Below are positions 5,582 to 25,515 of a DNA stretch of 40,396 bases, piece after piece (within the stretch, counting starts at the first letter, position 1; each line of letters starts with the position of its first letter). The stretch is from an uncultured Anaerolineaceae bacterium. Its GTDB lineage: Bacteria; Chloroflexota; Anaerolineae; Anaerolineales; Anaerolineaceae. The DNA is taken from positions 1 through 40,396 of the forward strand of contig CAKMKJ010000028.1 of NCBI GenBank assembly GCA_927443345.1, read 5' to 3'. A model generated the notes under the pieces. It had not been told where the DNA came from, did no database searches, and was given only the letters and a program-made list of their open reading frames with translations. Position numbers and translations under genes: made by a program.

Positions 5582-6236
5582 ATTTCATTATTACGTCTTT
5601 GATTGGTTTGTAAGTTTTACGATGCAAGTCACAAATCCCTGAGTGGATCAATGCTGTTTGGTGGATTTTTGTACCGTAGCCCTTATGCAAATCAAATCGA
5701 TATGCCGGAAATTGATCATGTACGGCAATCATCCAGGCGTCTCTTTCAGTCTTGGCTAAAATGGATGCTGCCGCAATACTGAGGCTGCGCTGATCACCTT
5801 TAATCAATGAAGTCTGGCTTTGCTCCAAATCTGGCAGGAACAATGCGTCAATTAAAAGGTGCTCGGCTTGGCATTGCAAGGCTACAACAGCCCGCATCAT
5901 GGCAAGGCGATTGGCGGGTAATATGCCCAATACATCAATTTCGCGGGTATCTGCTTGGGCCACAGCATATGACAGTGCATATTTCTTGATTAGCGAGGCA
6001 AGTTGAGTGCGTTTTTGGGGGCTAAGTTGTTTGGAATCACGAATACCAGCCAGACTGCTCTCAATGGTTGAATCACAGGGCAATATTACGGCTGCCGCGA
6101 AAACAGGTCCAGCCCACGCCCCCCGACCTGCTTCATCAATCCCCGCTACTTTGTGAATATTATTTAACCATAAACTTTGTTCAAAGCTTAGATTCGGAGC
6201 CTGGGGAATTTCAGTAAGGTCAAATTTGTTTCTCAT
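5580..6236 (-). CDS. rnhB: Ribonuclease HII
   Basis: RNase HII cleaves the RNA strand of RNA-DNA hybrids and removes single ribonucleotides misincorporated into DNA. The 218-residue protein shows the signature IDEAGRGAWAGPV near residue 34 with the catalytic Asp-Glu pair. A further acidic residue lies in LLIDAL, and the last one in KGDQRS, followed by the conserved SIAAASILAKTERD. The C-terminal DLHKGYGT motif is present. It is the last gene of a minus-strand operon. Its ATG lies inside the end of the upstream glycosyltransferase gene (17-nt overlap) and has no clear ribosome-binding site, so translation is probably coupled. The length is normal and the call is secure. Confidence 0.96.
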   Translation of the reverse strand: MRNKFDLTEIPQAPNLSFEQSLWLNNIHKVAGIDEAGRGAWAGPVFAAAVILPCDSTIESSLAGIRDSKQLSPQKRTQLASLIKKYALSYAVAQADTREIDVLGILPANRLAMMRAVVALQCQAEHLLIDALFLPDLEQSQTSLIKGDQRSLSIAAASILAKTERDAWMIAVHDQFPAYRFDLHKGYGTKIHQTALIHSGICDLHRKTYKPIKDVIMK

Positions 6237-6960
6237 ATGAGCGGGTGCGGATAATTTTGCGTACTTTGAATAATTCTTTTATGGTACGCAAAAAATCTCT
6301 GACCACATTTACTTTACTCTGCGGCTGATAATACCAGGGGACAGGAACTTCAACGACTTTGTAACCCAACTGCCTGGCAATTGCCAAAATTTCAACATCA
6401 AAGGTCCAGCCATGAATGGATTGCAAAGGAAACAGTTTTTCTGTAACCGCAGCCGAAAAACACTTGAAGCCGCATTGTGTATCATTAATGCCGGGTAAAA
6501 CCAGAACCCATACAACCATATTAAACACTCGTCCAATAATATGGCGGGTTAGGGGTTCATCATATCGAATAGCCCCTTTTGCCTCTCTTGAAGCAATTGC
6601 AATATCCACATTTTTTTGGAGGGGAGGTAGAAACCTGGGTATTTCTGTAATCGGCATCGAAAAATCCACGTCACAGAAAATGCGGTATTCGCCTGAAGCT
6701 GCCAGCATACCTTCTTTAACAGCCAATCCTTTGCCCGGCCGTTCTTCATGCAAAACCAACACGTTTTCATATTGAGAAGCATACTCACGCGCAATATCCA
6801 GGGTGCGGTCTTTGCTGGCATTTTCGACAATCACTATTTCGATTGGGTAATTTTGAGATTGGACAAACTGAGTCACTTGCTGCAAAGTCTCAGGGAGCCT
6901 TTGTTCTTCATTGTGAGCAGGCAATATGATAGAAAGGTATGGTTGTGTTTTTTGAGTCAT
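6220..6960 (-). CDS. Family 2 glycosyltransferase, polyprenyl-phosphate glycosyltransferase (ALG5/DPG-synthase type)
   Basis: A 246-residue GT-A enzyme. The N-terminus reads LSIILPAHNEEQRLPETL, followed by the nucleotide-sugar region with ENASKDRT, and a DVDFS acidic motif near residue 118 where GT2 enzymes bind metal. DTQCGFKCF near residue 160 is typical of dolichyl-phosphate glucosyltransferase relatives. A hydrophobic patch around residues 145-155 could touch the membrane. The family moves a hexose from a nucleotide sugar to a polyprenyl phosphate, making the donor for GT-C enzymes. The upstream partner gene encodes a GT-C-like membrane protein. I chose the ATG at 6960, which overlaps that gene's stop by one base (TGATG), over the TTG one codon earlier. 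Sugar and acceptor are unknown. Confidence 0.88.
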   Translation of the reverse strand: MTQKTQPYLSIILPAHNEEQRLPETLQQVTQFVQSQNYPIEIVIVENASKDRTLDIAREYASQYENVLVLHEERPGKGLAVKEGMLAASGEYRIFCDVDFSMPITEIPRFLPPLQKNVDIAIASREAKGAIRYDEPLTRHIIGRVFNMVVWVLVLPGINDTQCGFKCFSAAVTEKLFPLQSIHGWTFDVEILAIARQLGYKVVEVPVPWYYQPQSKVNVVRDFLRTIKELFKVRKIIRTRSYEKQI

Positions 6961-20327: not shown

Positions 20328-20356
20328 TTGACAAAATAAAAACCCTTTGTTATTAT
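20328..20356 (+). promoter_or_regulatory. Strong sigma70 promoter of the padR-DUF2812 operon
   Basis: Consensus TTGACA (20328-20333) and TATTAT (20351-20356) are separated by 17 nt. Transcription should start near 20363, giving a leader of about 55 nt that contains the repeated operator-like sequence. Confidence 0.8.
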
Positions 20357-20405
20357 ATCGCTACACGATACATCGTTATTCGCTACAACACTTAACGATA
20401 CAACG
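20355..20405 (+). promoter_or_regulatory. Operator candidate: repeated TCGCTACA...CGATACA...CG units
   Basis: Two direct units start TCGCTACA and end with GATACA(T/A)CG: 20358-20375 and 20380-20405. The first holds the inverted pairs TATCG-CTACA-CGATA and CGAT-AC-ATCG. They lie from the -10 box to just before the padR ribosome-binding site. Autorepression by the PadR protein is the simple reading, as is common for this family. Confidence 0.5.
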
Positions 20406-20416
20406 AAAGGCGTAAT

Positions 20417-20758
20417 ATGGATGAAAACAAGAAACTACAAGAACTGATCAAAAAAGCCACACCGCTTACGGAGGCCTCATACTACATATTGATCTCGCTT
20501 AAAGAGCCGCTGCATGGCTACGGTGTGATGCAAAAGGTGGATGAGTTGAGTCAAAAACGGGTACAGTTGGGCCCTGGCACCTTATATGGAGCACTCTCCA
20601 ATTTGCAGACACTGGGACTGATCGAGGCTGTTGGTGAAAGTGGCGGCGAGCGGCGCAAACTTTACTGCATGACCGAAACGGGACGGTTGGTTGCAGAACA
20701 CGAAGTTAAACGATTTGAAGAGCTCGCCCGGCATGGGCGGTTGTTAATGGAAATGTGA
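20417..20758 (+). CDS. PadR-family transcriptional regulator
   Basis: A 113-residue winged-helix regulator of the short PadR class (dimerisation through a single C-terminal helix). LTEASYYILISLKEPLHGYGVMQKV (residues 17-41) and LGPGTLYGALSNLQTLGLIE (53-72) are the family's helix-turn-helix core. SGGERRKLYCMTETGR forms the wing. The C-terminal helix FEELARHGRLLMEM completes it. It is the first gene of an operon; the next ORF, a DUF2812 protein, begins 8 nt after its stop. PadR regulators next to DUF2812 genes are a known pairing and suggest control of the membrane proteins behind it. The inducer is unknown. Confidence 0.92.
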   Translation: MDENKKLQELIKKATPLTEASYYILISLKEPLHGYGVMQKVDELSQKRVQLGPGTLYGALSNLQTLGLIEAVGESGGERRKLYCMTETGRLVAEHEVKRFEELARHGRLLMEM

Positions 20759-20766
20759 GGAGAAAT

Positions 20767-21333
20767 ATGAAAAACGAGTTAAATCCAGAGACCAAAACAG
20801 TTTTCAAAGCCATCTTTGCCTGGGAAGATGAAAAAGAAGAAAAGTGGCTCGAACAAATGGCGGCTGAAGGCTGGAAATTAACATCCGTTGCCCCCTATAT
20901 CTACAAGTTCCAGCGCAGCGAACCTGAAAAAAATATTTTTCGAATGGATTATAAAAACACTCTTGATAAAGATTATCAGGAATATTTATCGATCTTTAAG
21001 GATGCGGGTTGGGAAATGTTTGCCACATATGCGAACTGGCATTACTTCAAAGTTAAACCTGAAAACGAAAAAACTCCAGAAATCTATAACTCTGGCAAAG
21101 CCAAAGCACAGAAGTATCGCCGCTTATTGCTGGGAATGGTACCTCTTTTTCCAATTTACGTGATCTTACTCAATCCCGCTTTTCGCTATTCTGAAAGTAC
21201 GACTGATGGATTTTTCTATGGCTTACTGGGAGCTATAAAAATTGTAATGACACTTCTTTTGTTACTTATGGTTTATGCATTCATTAGAATTTTTGCCAAG
21301 ATCAAAAAACTGGAATCAGAAAGTAAGGAATAG
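20767..21333 (+). CDS. DUF2812 membrane protein, copy 1
   Basis: A 188-residue protein. Residues 12-80 form a soluble domain with FAWEDEKEEKWLEQMAAEGWKL, then MDYKNTLDKDYQEYLSIF and GWEMFATYANWHYFK, the DUF2812 pattern. Two hydrophobic helices follow (about 118-138 and 150-175), then a basic tail. Function is unknown; a cytosolic N-domain on a two-pass membrane anchor is the likely layout. I use the ATG at 20767 with GGAG 4 nt upstream rather than the GTG four codons earlier. It follows padR by 8 nt and overlaps nothing. It is clearly homologous to the next two genes. Confidence 0.85.
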   Translation: MKNELNPETKTVFKAIFAWEDEKEEKWLEQMAAEGWKLTSVAPYIYKFQRSEPEKNIFRMDYKNTLDKDYQEYLSIFKDAGWEMFATYANWHYFKVKPENEKTPEIYNSGKAKAQKYRRLLLGMVPLFPIYVILLNPAFRYSESTTDGFFYGLLGAIKIVMTLLLLLMVYAFIRIFAKIKKLESESKE

Positions 21334-21334
21334 A

Positions 21335-21892
21335 ATGATGAATCAAAAAATAACTACAACCAGGACCTCTTTCAAAGTTTTTCTTCCCTGGCAGGACGAA
21401 AATGAAGAAAAGTGGCTTGAAGAGTTGGCCATGGATGGCTGGATGCTGGAATCAGTGGTTCCTTTCGCTTATCGGTTTCGAAAGAGCATAGAAAAATCCA
21501 CAGTCATTCGACTTGATTACAAGAACTCCTGGGATAAAGATTATCAGGTATACCTTGCCACGTTTAGCGATGCGGGATGGACGCTGCTCACTACTTTCGG
21601 TAACTGGCATTACTTCAGCACCAACCCGCAAAACGAAATGATACCTGAGATCTATAATACAAATCGAACAAAAGCCATGAAATATCGCCGGGTGTTGATT
21701 GGGCTGGCTCCGCTCATGCTGCTCATGGTTAATCCATTGGCGCACGCATTTGATTTTGGCAGCCAATCTGAGGTTACAGGATTTGATATTGGTCTCAGGG
21801 TGTTCTTTCTTCTCGCGGCAGGGTTATTCATCTATTCATTCTTGAGAGTATGCATTAAACTGATATTATTGAAAACAAACAATCGGGAATGA
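21335..21892 (+). CDS. DUF2812 membrane protein, copy 2
   Basis: A 185-residue paralogue of the preceding protein with the same blocks: LPWQDENEEKWLEELAMDGWML, LDYKNSWDKDYQVYLATF and GWTLLTTFGNWHYFS. Two membrane helices follow (about 120-138 and 152-175). The ATG at 21335 starts one base after the previous stop. The ATG at 21338 is equally possible and lies 8 nt from an AAGGA site. The tight junction implies co-transcription and coupled translation with copy 1. Confidence 0.84.
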   Translation: MMNQKITTTRTSFKVFLPWQDENEEKWLEELAMDGWMLESVVPFAYRFRKSIEKSTVIRLDYKNSWDKDYQVYLATFSDAGWTLLTTFGNWHYFSTNPQNEMIPEIYNTNRTKAMKYRRVLIGLAPLMLLMVNPLAHAFDFGSQSEVTGFDIGLRVFFLLAAGLFIYSFLRVCIKLILLKTNNRE

Positions 21893-21942
21893 CACTTCAG
21901 GAGTGAGCCCTTTTTTTACTCGAAAATGAAAAAGAGTCAGAT

Positions 21943-22500
21943 ATGAGAAATCAACAGATCAAAAAAGTGAACCGGGTATTCTTTTCCGGGCAGAATGAAG
22001 AAAAACAAAAATGGCTGGAACAGATGTCAGCAGAAGGCTGGCAGCTTGTATCCGATACCTCATTTGTGTATTCTTTTCAAAGAGTGACTTCAGAAATTGT
22101 CGAAAATCAATTGTCTTACAGGTCGGTTTTAGGCAAGGATTTTCAAAAGTCCCAGCCGCTGTTTCAGGAGCCCAGACAAGATTGGGATGCTTTACTCGTT
22201 GAAAGCGAACCCGCCCCCAATCGCTTGATGCTAAAGACTCCTGCTCGCGTGGATGCAAGACAAGCTGGCGACTTCACAAAGAAACGTAGACTCGCAGCAG
22301 GGGTATTTGCGCTATTTCTATTCCTGATCGTTTTGATGACCAAGATCGTCATTATTTCTACCGGAGACTTCATGTCTCTTTTCAAATTGCAGTTTTTTGC
22401 TGGCATCCTCTTTGTTGGAACCTGCCTGATCTTTGGATTAGTCATGGTATTCAAGGTTTTTATAAAAGTCATCTCACCTGTCTGCAAAACAAAGAAATAA
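21943..22500 (+). CDS. DUF2812-like membrane protein, divergent copy 3
   Basis: A 185-residue protein that keeps the first DUF2812 block (FSGQNEEKQKWLEQMSAEGWQL, FVYSFQR) but has lost the conserved middle. In place of the DKDYQxY and GNWHYF blocks it has GKDFQKSQPLFQEPRQDWDALLVE and a basic segment. Two hydrophobic helices (about 112-132 and 145-172) end it. It lies 50 nt after copy 2, and its ribosome-binding site is weak. It reads as a degenerating or repurposed duplicate. It is the last gene before a long-stem terminator. Confidence 0.75.
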   Translation: MRNQQIKKVNRVFFSGQNEEKQKWLEQMSAEGWQLVSDTSFVYSFQRVTSEIVENQLSYRSVLGKDFQKSQPLFQEPRQDWDALLVESEPAPNRLMLKTPARVDARQAGDFTKKRRLAAGVFALFLFLIVLMTKIVIISTGDFMSLFKLQFFAGILFVGTCLIFGLVMVFKVFIKVISPVCKTKK

Positions 22501-22516
22501 AATTATCTGCCGCTTT

Positions 22517-22561
22517 AAAGAGGTTTATTAATCGGTTTAATCTGATTAATAAACCTCTTTT
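22517..22561 (+). terminator. Long-stem terminator ending the padR-DUF2812 operon
   Basis: A perfect 17-bp stem (AAAGAGGTTTATTAATC and its complement) encloses a 10-nt loop and ends in CTCTTTT. The 3' T run is short but the stem is long. Confidence 0.7.
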
Positions 22562-24292: not shown

Positions 24293-25141
24293 TTACGGCT
24301 GGGTAAACACGACTCTCAGGCTGCCGTAAGTGGTTTTGTTCGCAGCATCATTGCCGCAGACAGGCGCAGAAAGACCGGTGACCGGTTGGCCAGATTCGCC
24401 GATGCGGATGGTGTAGACAGCGTCAGGCTGAAACAGGTAATCTGCGTAGCCCAGGCTGATTTCGGGGTAGAGACCGGTATAAAAGGTCTCAACGCCACCT
24501 GTGGCTTGAGAGATTTCGATGCGCACGCCCGGCACGGCCTGACCGCTCGAGTCGAGGACGATGATCTGCAAGAGTGAAACGGCCGGTAGCGGGTCGCAGA
24601 TAATGGTGGGCTCCTCCTGGATGACAAAAGGTGAACCCAGTGTGGGCTGCGGTGTCATGGTGGGACGGGGTGTATTGGTTGCGCCCGGTGTGTTGGCGGC
24701 AGCTTGAGGGGTCTCAGCACCGCTTGTGCCGGCATCTTCTGGTGTGGCAGGGATGATCTCGACAGCCATGGGGGTGAGCATGGGCAGCGGGGTGATCGAA
24801 AGAGAAGGTTCACTGACCGCCGCTGCCAGCAAAGCCAGTGCTCTGGCGCGTGCGTCGCTGCCGCTTTCGGCCAGCATGCTTTGCGCCTGGGCGATTACCA
24901 CCTCGGCAGGATTAACGTCTTGCAGCAACGCCAATCTAGACCTGGCGCGTCCGCCATCACCTTCGGCGAGGTAGGCCTGGGCGACCATGATGCGGTATGC
25001 CTCTTTGCCCTCCGCGGATAAGGTGGAGGGGTCAGTGTTGATGTATTGCACAGGGATCACCGTCACCGAGAGAACCAGGCCTATGATCACACCTATAATC
25101 ACACCTGTTAAGAGATACCATGAACCGCGATTTTCGGTCAT
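24293..25141 (-). CDS. Membrane-anchored hypothetical protein with Thr/Pro-rich linker
   Basis: A 282-residue protein not recognised beyond its architecture. One N-terminal membrane helix (about 9-31) ends in IPVQ. It is followed by an Ala/Arg-rich helical region (about 35-115) with repeat-like segments (YRIMVAQAYLAEGDGGRAR, ARALALLAAAVSE). A Thr/Pro/Ala-rich linker (about 116-175) leads to a C-terminal beta-rich domain (about 185-282) with VPGVRIEISQATGG, which looks like an Ig/carboxypeptidase-regulatory-like fold. The C-domain is expected outside the cell. The first half is clearly paralogous to the gene immediately upstream, with which it overlaps by 4 nt (ATGA). Co-transcribed with hutU. 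Confidence 0.72.
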   Translation of the reverse strand: MTENRGSWYLLTGVIIGVIIGLVLSVTVIPVQYINTDPSTLSAEGKEAYRIMVAQAYLAEGDGGRARSRLALLQDVNPAEVVIAQAQSMLAESGSDARARALALLAAAVSEPSLSITPLPMLTPMAVEIIPATPEDAGTSGAETPQAAANTPGATNTPRPTMTPQPTLGSPFVIQEEPTIICDPLPAVSLLQIIVLDSSGQAVPGVRIEISQATGGVETFYTGLYPEISLGYADYLFQPDAVYTIRIGESGQPVTGLSAPVCGNDAANKTTYGSLRVVFTQP

Positions 25142-25515
25142 GGCGTCACCTCCGTTGTTGGAGTTATCGGTGCTGCGTTTGAAGAAGCACCCATGGCGGT
25201 CTGGAGCAAGGTGATCAACTGCAATTCACGGGGAGAGTAACCCAACTGCTGACCGAGGATGAGCGCTTCTTTGATGCTGGCGGCAGGGTCGGATGGCTTA
25301 ATATCACGCAACAAGGCAGTGGCAGTGAGCACATCTTGATCGGCGGCGAATTTCTCAGCCACCATCAAGACATAATCCGCCTGGTAGTCGCCGCGCAGAG
25401 ACTCAAGGGGGGCGTTTTTGACCTGCGCGGGGATAAGCAGCCAGCCAATCACCAATCCGGCAAAAACCCCGACCAGTATGGCGATCATGAATCCGATTTG
25501 GCGCTTATTCTGCAT
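25138..25515 (-). CDS. Membrane-anchored hypothetical protein, paralogue of the next gene
   Basis: A 125-residue protein with one N-terminal membrane helix (about 8-30) ending in IPAQ, then a helical region with YQADYVLMVAEKFAADQDVLTATALLRDI and LQLITLLQTAM, and a Thr/Pro tail. It aligns through its whole length with the first half of the following protein, so the pair arose by tandem duplication. AAGGA lies 7 nt before the ATG. It sits 3 nt after hutU, so it is in the same operon. No function is known to me; the helical part resembles solenoid repeats that could hold a partner protein at the membrane. Confidence 0.72.
   Translation of the reverse strand: MQNKRQIGFMIAILVGVFAGLVIGWLLIPAQVKNAPLESLRGDYQADYVLMVAEKFAADQDVLTATALLRDIKPSDPAASIKEALILGQQLGYSPRELQLITLLQTAMGASSNAAPITPTTEVTP

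What the first reader, a model, noticed from the sequence alone, without database searches (positions are those of the whole stretch)
20417..22500. PadR operon with three tandem DUF2812 membrane proteins
PadR-DUF2812 pairs are known mainly as one regulator with one membrane protein. Here three paralogues follow in tandem, the third having lost the conserved middle blocks while keeping the first block and both membrane helices. This suggests a hetero-oligomeric membrane system or serial duplication with divergence of a sensor.
Basis: partly seen in the sequence, partly recalled or inferred. Interest (0 to 1): 0.5.

Follow-up and report, generated by a model that had tools for sequence, protein, structure and literature searches.

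The report
PadR operon, three DUF2812 membrane paralogues
A small bacterial operon encodes a repressor and three related membrane proteins of unknown function, the third a reduced but selectively kept copy, and it sits behind a regularly spaced DNA repeat that also precedes its relatives in several other bacterial phyla.

Summary
A PadR repressor gene is followed by three tandem DUF2812 genes. Copies 1 and 2 are complete and 44% identical. Copy 3 keeps the first half of the domain and the membrane hairpin but has lost the second-half beta hairpin.

The locus lies between gatB and a glutamate dehydrogenase gene. Of 16 genomes of the genus, three (the window's included) carry the triple, copy 2 broken in one; a fourth has copies 2 and 3, a fifth a single gene, seven an empty site; four were not informative. 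Copy 3 is intact in 4 of 4 and under purifying selection. Tandem or fused DUF2812 modules recur rarely in Bacillota and Oxalobacteraceae, with another triple in Massilia arenosa.

The more striking result lies upstream: a ladder of CGATATATCG-like units every 15 bp overlaps the -10. Its core palindrome precedes 74 of 95 PadR genes in DUF2812 loci from at least four phyla, against 1 of 342 control gene starts. In 147 genomes, 13 of 16 exact palindromes lie beside PadR-DUF2812.

Best reading: an autorepressed envelope-stress module with membrane-anchored sensor or effector proteins, copy 3 a specialised partner. DNA binding, sensing and hetero-oligomerisation are inferred, not shown.

The parts
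20328..20356 (+). sigma-70-type promoter TTGACA-17-TATTAT, 11 of 12 consensus bases
   Evidence: count of such sites not above chance; TTGACA and TATTATAT invariant in 5 syntenic genomes
20354..20405 (.). operator ladder with a 15-bp period: TATATCG ctaca CGATACATCG ttatt CGCTACAACA cttaa CGATACAACG; overlaps the -10
   Evidence: PadR binding is inferred. At the script's threshold of 7/10 only the first two units count as consecutive; the third matches 6/10 and the fourth 8/10, all in register
20417..20758 (+). PadR-family repressor, 113 aa, no tryptophan
   Evidence: PF03551 E 5.5e-14
20767..21333 (+). DUF2812 copy 1, complete: soluble domain plus two membrane helices
   Evidence: PF11193 E 7.9e-29; model pLDDT 89.7
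21335..21892 (+). DUF2812 copy 2, complete
   Evidence: PF11193 E 1.8e-23
21943..22500 (+). DUF2812 copy 3, reduced: first unit and second helix kept, beta5-beta6 hairpin lost, membrane hairpin kept
   Evidence: PF11193 E 1.2e-7, profile 3-55
22517..22560 (+). terminator-like hairpin of 19 pairs with a weak T run
   Evidence: not listed by the consensus scan

Best explanation
This is a self-contained, PadR-autoregulated envelope-stress operon. In the resting state PadR dimers sit side by side on a ladder of operator units spaced 15 bp apart that covers the -10 and the stretch up to the ribosome-binding site, and block transcription (inferred). DUF2812 proteins are predicted to be a beta-alpha-beta-beta / beta-alpha-beta-beta domain on a two-helix membrane hairpin (predicted), the domain facing the cytoplasm (inferred). 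When the membrane is disturbed, the domain most likely relieves PadR repression, and/or the induced proteins protect the membrane (inferred). The operon arose from a one-regulator-one-membrane-protein unit at the same chromosomal site by tandem duplication (best reading of synteny and tree). Copies 1 and 2 remained complete. Copy 3 shed the second-half hairpin but stayed under selection (shown) and most likely works as a specialised partner of the complete copies in a mixed assembly (inferred).
For: (i) Order and spacing; the median PadR-to-DUF2812 gap is -1 nt in 78 pairs (a set with near-copies, start codons guessed by script), which suggests coupled translation. (ii) A single-copy relative at the same gatB-gdh site (G015) and an empty site in 7 of 16 genus members. 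(iii) Copies 1, 2 and 3 each form a clade with bootstrap 100 across species; the copy 3 profile scores copy 1 and the single copy of G015 at 72-80 bits, copy 2 at 28-63, other DUF2812 loci at about 45 or less. (iv) Copy 3 is open in 4 of 4 genomes that have it, dN/dS 0.11-0.25 in the five of six pairs that could be computed, first unit pN/pS 0.13-0.19; residues 1-16 are 15/16 invariant and 63-81 are 15/19. (v) Ladder: palindrome at 74 of 95 PadR starts against 1 of 342 control gene starts; three or more consecutive units in 56 of 95 at period 15 and in 0 at periods 11-14 and 16-22; 13 of 16 exact matches in 147 whole genomes lie beside PadR-DUF2812, reversed control 0. (vi) At 3 of those 13 sites DUF2812 is the first gene of the operon and the site still precedes the operon. 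(vii) 6 of 95 of these PadR proteins have a Trp in the C-terminal helix region and the window's has none, so an LmrR-type drug pocket is less likely and sensing by the partner more likely. (viii) Two-module chains and further tandem sets in other phyla.
Against: No binding, expression or phenotype data. The related genome G006 lacks copy 1 and G003 has a broken copy 2, so no full triple is strictly required. The window's own ladder is degenerate in its third unit (6/10) and 21 of 95 loci lack the palindrome, 13 of them in Bacillota. A profile comparison gave no support for an internal repeat in the domain. No known fold was matched. The copy 3 model is poor (pLDDT 69.0, residues 52-104 under 50), so it may not fold alone or the alignment may be too thin. 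Tandem copies are rare even within the family (4 of 147 genomes). In the nearest studied analogue the membrane protein BC4207 acts as a resistance effector, and nothing in the passages I read says that it is a DUF2812 protein (PMC2774856).
Confidence: 0.5

Rival explanations
1. The three proteins act independently as sub-functionalised sensors or effectors (different ligands or lipids) under one repressor, with no mixed complex.
For: The single-copy form is the norm. G006 has copies 2 and 3 only and G003 a broken copy 2. Copies 2 and 3 evolve faster than copy 1.
Against: Two-module DUF2812 chains in Bacillota show that modules can work side by side. Copy 3 alone lacks the second-half hairpin and is modelled with low confidence there although residues 63-81 are conserved, which suggests it needs a partner.
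Confidence: 0.33
2. DUF2812 proteins are pure effectors (membrane protection or resistance), and PadR senses the inducer directly, as LmrR does.
For: In B. cereus the PadR-linked membrane protein BC4207 raises AS-48 resistance (PMC2774856, passages). [quoted passage not shown]).
Against: Only 6 of 95 PadR proteins of this set have a Trp in the C-terminal helix region, and the B. cereus structure paper considers an indirect mechanism with another protein (PMC3506622, Discussion).
Confidence: 0.3
3. Copy 3, and perhaps copy 2, is a decaying by-product of tandem duplication.
For: Copy 2 of G003 has a frameshift and a stop. The copy 3 linker 82-112 is nearly unconstrained (2/31 invariant; pN/pS 0.34-1.12 for 71-112). 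Long branch 2.72.
Against: Copy 3 is open in 4 of 4 genomes with dN/dS 0.11-0.25 at dS 0.7-1.9 (one pair saturated), and its first 16 residues are 15/16 invariant.
Confidence: 0.05
4. The 15-bp ladder is not a PadR operator but another element (promoter architecture, RNA signal, binding site of another protein).
For: The first unit overlaps the -10, so part of the TATA signal is shared with the promoter. 21 of 95 PadR starts in DUF2812 loci lack the palindrome (some of these are operons with DUF2812 first, where the site lies before DUF2812).
Against: It extends past the -10 in strict register, is nearly absent from control gene starts (1 of 342) and the strict site is absent from the stretches around the 12 PadR genes of the same genome without DUF2812. 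A second PadR-DUF2812 pair in the same genome has the same geometry with a changed half-site (CTATATA).
Confidence: 0.1

Closest known systems
PadR-DUF2812 gene pairs (PF03551 + PF11193) in Bacillota and Chloroflexota
   Same: Adjacent, usually closely spaced genes; same domain and membrane hairpin; same palindrome at 54 of 61 Chloroflexota and 11 of 24 Bacillota PadR starts
   Different: Here three DUF2812 genes, one of them reduced
Massilia arenosa PadR plus three DUF2812 genes (L097)
   Same: One PadR and three tandem DUF2812 genes; the palindrome is present
   Different: Different phylum; taken as separate in origin because its complete copy falls elsewhere in the tree (only that copy was placed). 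Two copies lack 5 and 4 of 40 second-unit positions, the complete one 1; all keep the beta5-beta6 hairpin that window copy 3 lost
Proteins with two DUF2812 modules in Bacillota (L127, L128, L129, L131)
   Same: PadR upstream; two modules side by side
   Different: One polypeptide; both modules keep the hairpin and lack 3-6 of 15 positions of the second helix; no CGATATA palindrome at the PadR start
B. cereus BC4206-BC4207 (bcPadR1 and a 4-segment membrane protein)
   Same: Short PadR plus membrane protein, thought to be autoregulated, induced by a membrane-active peptide that had no effect on DNA binding in vitro (PMC2774856 passages; PMC3506622 passages and Discussion)
   Different: Membrane protein with four segments, not said to be DUF2812; proposed motif ATGT-N10-ATAA
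Listeria LltR operon (PadR, DUF1700, DUF4097)
   Same: PadR followed by membrane proteins, strong autorepression (PMC6624303, abstract and passages)
   Different: Other domains; no ladder described in the passages read
cdPadR1 of Clostridioides difficile
   Same: Short PadR with two inverted repeats in its own promoter, motif overlapping the -10 at some targets, several shifted complexes (PMC5050560, passages)
   Different: Motif TACT-N11/12-AGTA with a tolerant spacer; conserved Trp in helix 4

Membership tests
DUF2812 (PF11193) | Profile match over the gathering score | tested here: met
   All three: 100.6, 83.3 and 32.4 bits against 27.8
DUF2812 (PF11193) | Whole domain present (copies 1 and 2) | tested here: met
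   Profile 3-102 of 110 in both
DUF2812 (PF11193) | Whole domain present (copy 3) | tested here: not met
   Profile 3-55 only; 14 of 14 beta5-beta6 positions missing. Copy 3 is a reduced relative, not a full member
DUF2812 (PF11193) | Known function or fold | not testable with these tools
   No function in the passages of the two papers that name it; no confident fold match, though the soluble domain was not searched alone
PadR family (PF03551) | PadR winged-helix profile | tested here: met
   52.4 bits against 27
PadR-s2 subfamily (LmrR, bcPadR1, cdPadR1) | Short protein with one C-terminal helix | tested here: inconclusive
   113 aa, and the median of the set is 113; related by sequence to solved PadR-like chains including 3f8b and 3f8c, which PMC5050560 calls LmrR; structure not modelled
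PadR-s2 subfamily (LmrR, bcPadR1, cdPadR1) | Conserved Trp in helix 4 (PMC5050560) | tested here: not met
   No Trp in the window PadR; 6 of 95 in the set have one in that region
PadR-s2 subfamily (LmrR, bcPadR1, cdPadR1) | Operator ATGT-N8/10-ACAT or TACT-N11/12-AGTA | tested here: not met
   0 exact matches in the window for either (degenerate forms not searched); a 15-bp ladder of CGATATATCG-like units instead
Anti-phage defence systems (PADLOC) | Profile match | tested here: not met
   Best E 0.0099, AbiO against copy 3; no other below 0.01

The most novel reading that the evidence does not exclude
PadR-DUF2812 is a membrane-stress circuit found across several phyla, in which PadR assembles as a contiguous row of dimers on a 15-bp operator ladder whose geometry is fixed while the half-site can change between co-resident copies (CGATATA against CTATATA). 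The membrane-anchored DUF2812 domain directly strips PadR from that row. The window's operon is a hetero-oligomeric version in which a half-domain paralogue tunes the response.
Probability: 0.25. Interest if true: 0.7.

Novelty: new variant of a known kind. Interest (0 to 1): 0.5.

Why it matters
DUF2812 has no known function that I found: a full-text search of the held library gave two papers that name it in passing and none that name its Pfam accession. The ladder gives a concrete, testable regulator-operator pair seen in Chloroflexota, Bacillota and Pseudomonadota, in the one Acidobacteriota locus and in two Aminicenantes loci, which makes the function of the family directly testable with a reporter. 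It also gives a way to find such systems from DNA alone. The reduced copy 3 is a natural truncation that marks which half of the domain can be shed and which is kept.

Tried and rejected
Pseudogene reading of copy 3: rejected. Internal duplication of the DUF2812 domain, suggested by the symmetric predicted order of strands and helices: the two halves did not match by profile comparison (E 0.14, score 9.2, within the range of 30 column shuffles, 4.7-12.2). The order resembles a tandem SHS2 / GyrI-like fold, but that is recalled, and the fold search did not test it: Foldseek gave no match at E <= 0.001, and the second look was filled mostly by the membrane-helix part (model 108-188), so absence of a family there says nothing. 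DUF4177 (15 of 65 members, best 3.9e-5) and DUF2207_C (14 of 65, best 1.3e-4) appear as weak relatives and were not followed.

A second promoter inside the end of copy 2 (TTGAGA-16-TATTAT) and unusual synonymous conservation there: windows of codons showed nothing clearly above the rest of the operon. Defence system: no match of note. Plasmid context: 18 plasmid records have a match, four regions were read, and no shared neighbour pointed to a function. PadR recognition segment against operator: SGT-YGTL goes mostly without the palindrome (1 with, 4 without), but 57 of 95 rows fell into 'other', so weak. Four further paper searches on PadR with membrane proteins or repeats gave only the analogues cited.

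Start codons were guessed by script. The shuffles keep only base composition; the 342 other gene starts and the whole-genome search are the better controls. In the window's genome the reversed control of the one-mismatch pattern also gave one match. The viral-contig search for the double unit gave 2 contigs with no PadR or DUF2812 in the stretches held. dS is above 1 for many pairs, so dN/dS is rough. For G015 the script printed a wrong stretch, so its ladder is read. Two-module counts rest on match positions in the listed tables.
Full report
CHECK OF THE OBSERVATION. The operon is as described. PadR (20417-20758) is followed by copy 1 (20767-21333), copy 2 (21335-21892) and copy 3 (21943-22500) on the same strand. 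PadR matches PF03551 and the copies match PF11193 at 7.9e-29, 1.8e-23 and 1.2e-7. The copies are paralogues: 44%, 29% and 34% identity in pairs, with E-values from 3e-62 to 2e-12. A sigma-70-type promoter ends 60 nt before PadR; the number of such sites in the stretch is not above chance, but both boxes are invariant in five syntenic genomes. A 19-bp hairpin with a weak T run follows the operon. The neighbours are gatB and an alpha-amylase gene upstream and a glutamate dehydrogenase gene (gdh) downstream.

WHAT COPY 3 IS. The AlphaFold model of copy 1 is good (pLDDT 89.7, pTM 0.82): strand 9-13, helix 18-33, strands 36-42, 45-50 and 57-62, helix 70-79, strands 83-88 and 91-96, then helices 110-124, 127-140 and 148-186. 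Copy 3 keeps the first strand-helix-strand-strand unit and the second helix, and loses the last two strands and the linker. Its model is confident for about residues 1-50, below 50 for 52-104, and fair for the membrane helices (mean 69.0). In 56 relatives with one complete copy at most 2 of 40 second-unit positions are missing; in copy 3, 17 of 40 are. Basic residues flank the membrane hairpin on both sides in copy 1 (KAKAQKYRR before, AKIKK after), so I infer that the soluble domain faces the cytoplasm.

HISTORY. PF11193 was searched in 16 genomes of the genus: 6 have it. The window's locus is syntenic in four others (regions; names by equal contig length). Chloroflexi bacterium WY2.bin104 (G013) has all three copies open. 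HGW-Chloroflexi-4 (G003) has three, copy 2 broken by a frameshift and a stop, unless that is an assembly error. UBA8523 (G006) has PadR, copy 2 and copy 3. Anaerolineaceae bin45 (G015) has PadR and one complete DUF2812. In 7 of the 16 genomes gatB and gdh lie 230-340 nt apart with no PadR or DUF2812 match between; 4 of 16 were not informative (contig ends or no orthologue). In the tree of 70 proteins each copy is a clade with bootstrap 100, and copies 1, 2 and the G015 protein group together at 94/80; copy 3 sits on a very long branch outside them. The copy 3 profile scores copy 1 and G015 at 72-80 bits, copy 2 at 28-63 and other loci at about 45 or less. So copy 3 most likely came from a local duplication before these four species split.

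SELECTION. Nei-Gojobori estimates: copy 1 dN/dS 0.06-0.11 among the three genomes that have it; copy 2 0.18-0.20 for complete pairs (0.11-0.31 with the partial G003 gene); copy 3 0.11-0.25 in five of six pairs, the sixth saturated; gdh 0.01-0.06. In copy 3, pN/pS is 0.13-0.19 in the first 70 codons, 0.34-1.12 in 71-112 and 0.25-0.37 in the membrane part. Residues 1-16 are 15/16 invariant, 63-81 15/19, 82-112 2/31. Copy 3 is kept by selection, while the linker drifts.

HOW COMMON. In the family, 42 of 147 genomes have DUF2812, and arrays occur in 4 of 147, all in this genus. Of 400 Chloroflexota genomes sampled, 5 have it and, by match positions, only the window's genome has an array. Of 398 Bacillota genomes, 65 have it. 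By match positions, 6 of those 65 have two adjacent modules: two as separate genes, three as one chain, one as a two-module chain interrupted by a stop. I saw none with three. A fused two-module gene also occurs in Aquibacillus koreensis. Of 245 genomes of the family of Massilia (Oxalobacteraceae), 26 have it, with one pair and one triple. The triple is Massilia arenosa: PadR, then a copy with 5 of 40 second-unit positions missing, a complete copy (1 of 40) and one with 4 of 40 missing. Among the 65 loci of the genome-contig scan, 63 have PadR beside DUF2812. So one-to-one is the rule, and multi-module sets appear now and then in other lineages.

THE OPERATOR LADDER. Aligning the five syntenic promoters showed an invariant core on the -10 (TATTATATCG, then CGATA after five bases) and a 15-nt gap in G006 and G015. 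Upstream of PadR in DUF2812 loci the same palindrome recurs. In 95 non-redundant PadR starts (114 before removal of near-copies) 74 have TATATCG-N5-CGATATA with at most one mismatch per half within 200 nt; among 342 other gene starts in the genome-scan loci 1 has it; 486 half-sites were found against 75.4 in shuffles. Same-strand half-sites lie 15, 30 and 45 bp apart (75, 54 and 24 cases), opposite ones 12 and 27 (148 and 92). Read as units CGATATATCG plus 5 bp, three or more in a row at 7/10 occur in 56 of 95 loci at period 15 and in none at periods 11-14 or 16-22; shuffles gave 0.00. The palindrome is present in 54 of 61 Chloroflexota, 11 of 24 Bacillota, 6 of 7 Pseudomonadota, 2 of 2 Aminicenantes and 1 of 1 Acidobacteriota loci. 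The window itself has two strict consecutive units, a third at 6/10 and a fourth at 8/10, all in register. The 15-nt gap in G006 and G015 equals one unit.

GENOME-WIDE TEST. An exact search for TATATCG-N5-CGATATA in the 147 family genomes, blind to genes, found 16 sites in 14 genomes; the reversed control found none. The window's own site, with one base different, is not among them. 13 of the 16 (in 12 genomes) lie beside a PadR-DUF2812 operon; at three of these DUF2812 is the first gene and the site still precedes the operon; the other three sites (one in G056, two in G123) lie elsewhere. In the window's genome a search for TATATCG-N5-CGATAYA with up to one mismatch gives the window's site and one other place with one mismatch; the reversed control also gives one match. 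Of the 14 PadR matches in that genome, only the window's has the strict site in the stretch held. A second PadR-DUF2812 pair in that genome, and its relatives in G013 and G014, have a ladder with the same 15-bp step, with CTATATA or a near form in place of CGATATA in most units. I read this as two insulated copies of the same kind of circuit.

MECHANISM. Shown: gene order, conservation, ladder, selection. Inferred: PadR is the protein that binds the ladder; it represses by covering the -10; DUF2812 senses or protects the membrane; copy 3 is a partner of complete copies. Support for sensing outside PadR: the window PadR has no Trp, and 6 of 95 in the set have one in the C-terminal helix region, where LmrR-type repressors have a conserved Trp tied to drug binding (PMC5050560, passages). 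The authors of the B. cereus structure paper consider an indirect mechanism with another protein (PMC3506622, Discussion read). Support for an envelope-stress role is by analogy: BC4206-BC4207 (PMC2774856, passages) and the Listeria PadR operons, whose authors assume a response to compounds acting on the cell envelope (PMC6624303, abstract and passages).

LITERATURE. DUF2812 occurs in 2 papers of the held library: as an unstudied gene near a resistance gene (PMC13095541, one passage) and as a fusion partner of RelI homologues, said to have no reliable similarity to known families (PMC13284704, one passage). PF11193 occurs in none. Searches for PadR with CGATATA (4 papers), TATATCG (7) and ATATCG (52, of which 15 were listed) returned no listed paper whose title pointed to this operator; I opened passages of three, where the strings shown lie in primer or oligonucleotide lists. 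This is not proof of absence: most subscription papers are not held.

VERDICT. Observation confirmed; interpretation partly supported. The triple array is a real, selected, local elaboration of a known gene pair. The ladder is the most surprising part, and the cheapest to test.

Noticed in passing
window 20354-20405 and upstream of PadR in DUF2812 loci of several phyla: Operator ladder with a strict 15-bp period, not part of the finding as given; became the main new result.
   Followed up: yes
L002 (G000:C18), L022, L023 upstream of PadR: Second PadR-DUF2812 pair in the same genome and its relatives have the same 15-bp ladder geometry with CTATATA-like half-sites instead of CGATATA in most units.
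   Followed up: partly
L195 306-339, L196 4129-4162: Two viral contigs (IMG/VR) carry an exact double ladder unit with no PadR or DUF2812 found in the stretches held.
   Followed up: no
L127, L128, L129, L131: Proteins of about 370-400 aa from Bacillota genomes with two DUF2812 modules and membrane helices in one chain, PadR upstream.
   Followed up: partly
L133-L136: Other Bacillota DUF2812 proteins of about 390-460 aa with one clear DUF2812 module and a long unidentified C-terminal part.
   Followed up: no
L163 4645-5510: A Listeria monocytogenes record has PadR-DUF2812 beside two glucosaminidase-domain genes; the record is labelled a plasmid but carries cobalamin genes, so it may be chromosomal.
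   Followed up: no
window 24293-25515: Two neighbouring minus-strand ORFs without a Pfam match at 1e-10 look like distant paralogues of each other (28% over 78 aa).
   Followed up: no
L017 about 6195-6300: Copy 2 of HGW-Chloroflexi-4 is broken near its start by a frameshift and a stop, while copies 1 and 3 are open.
   Followed up: partly
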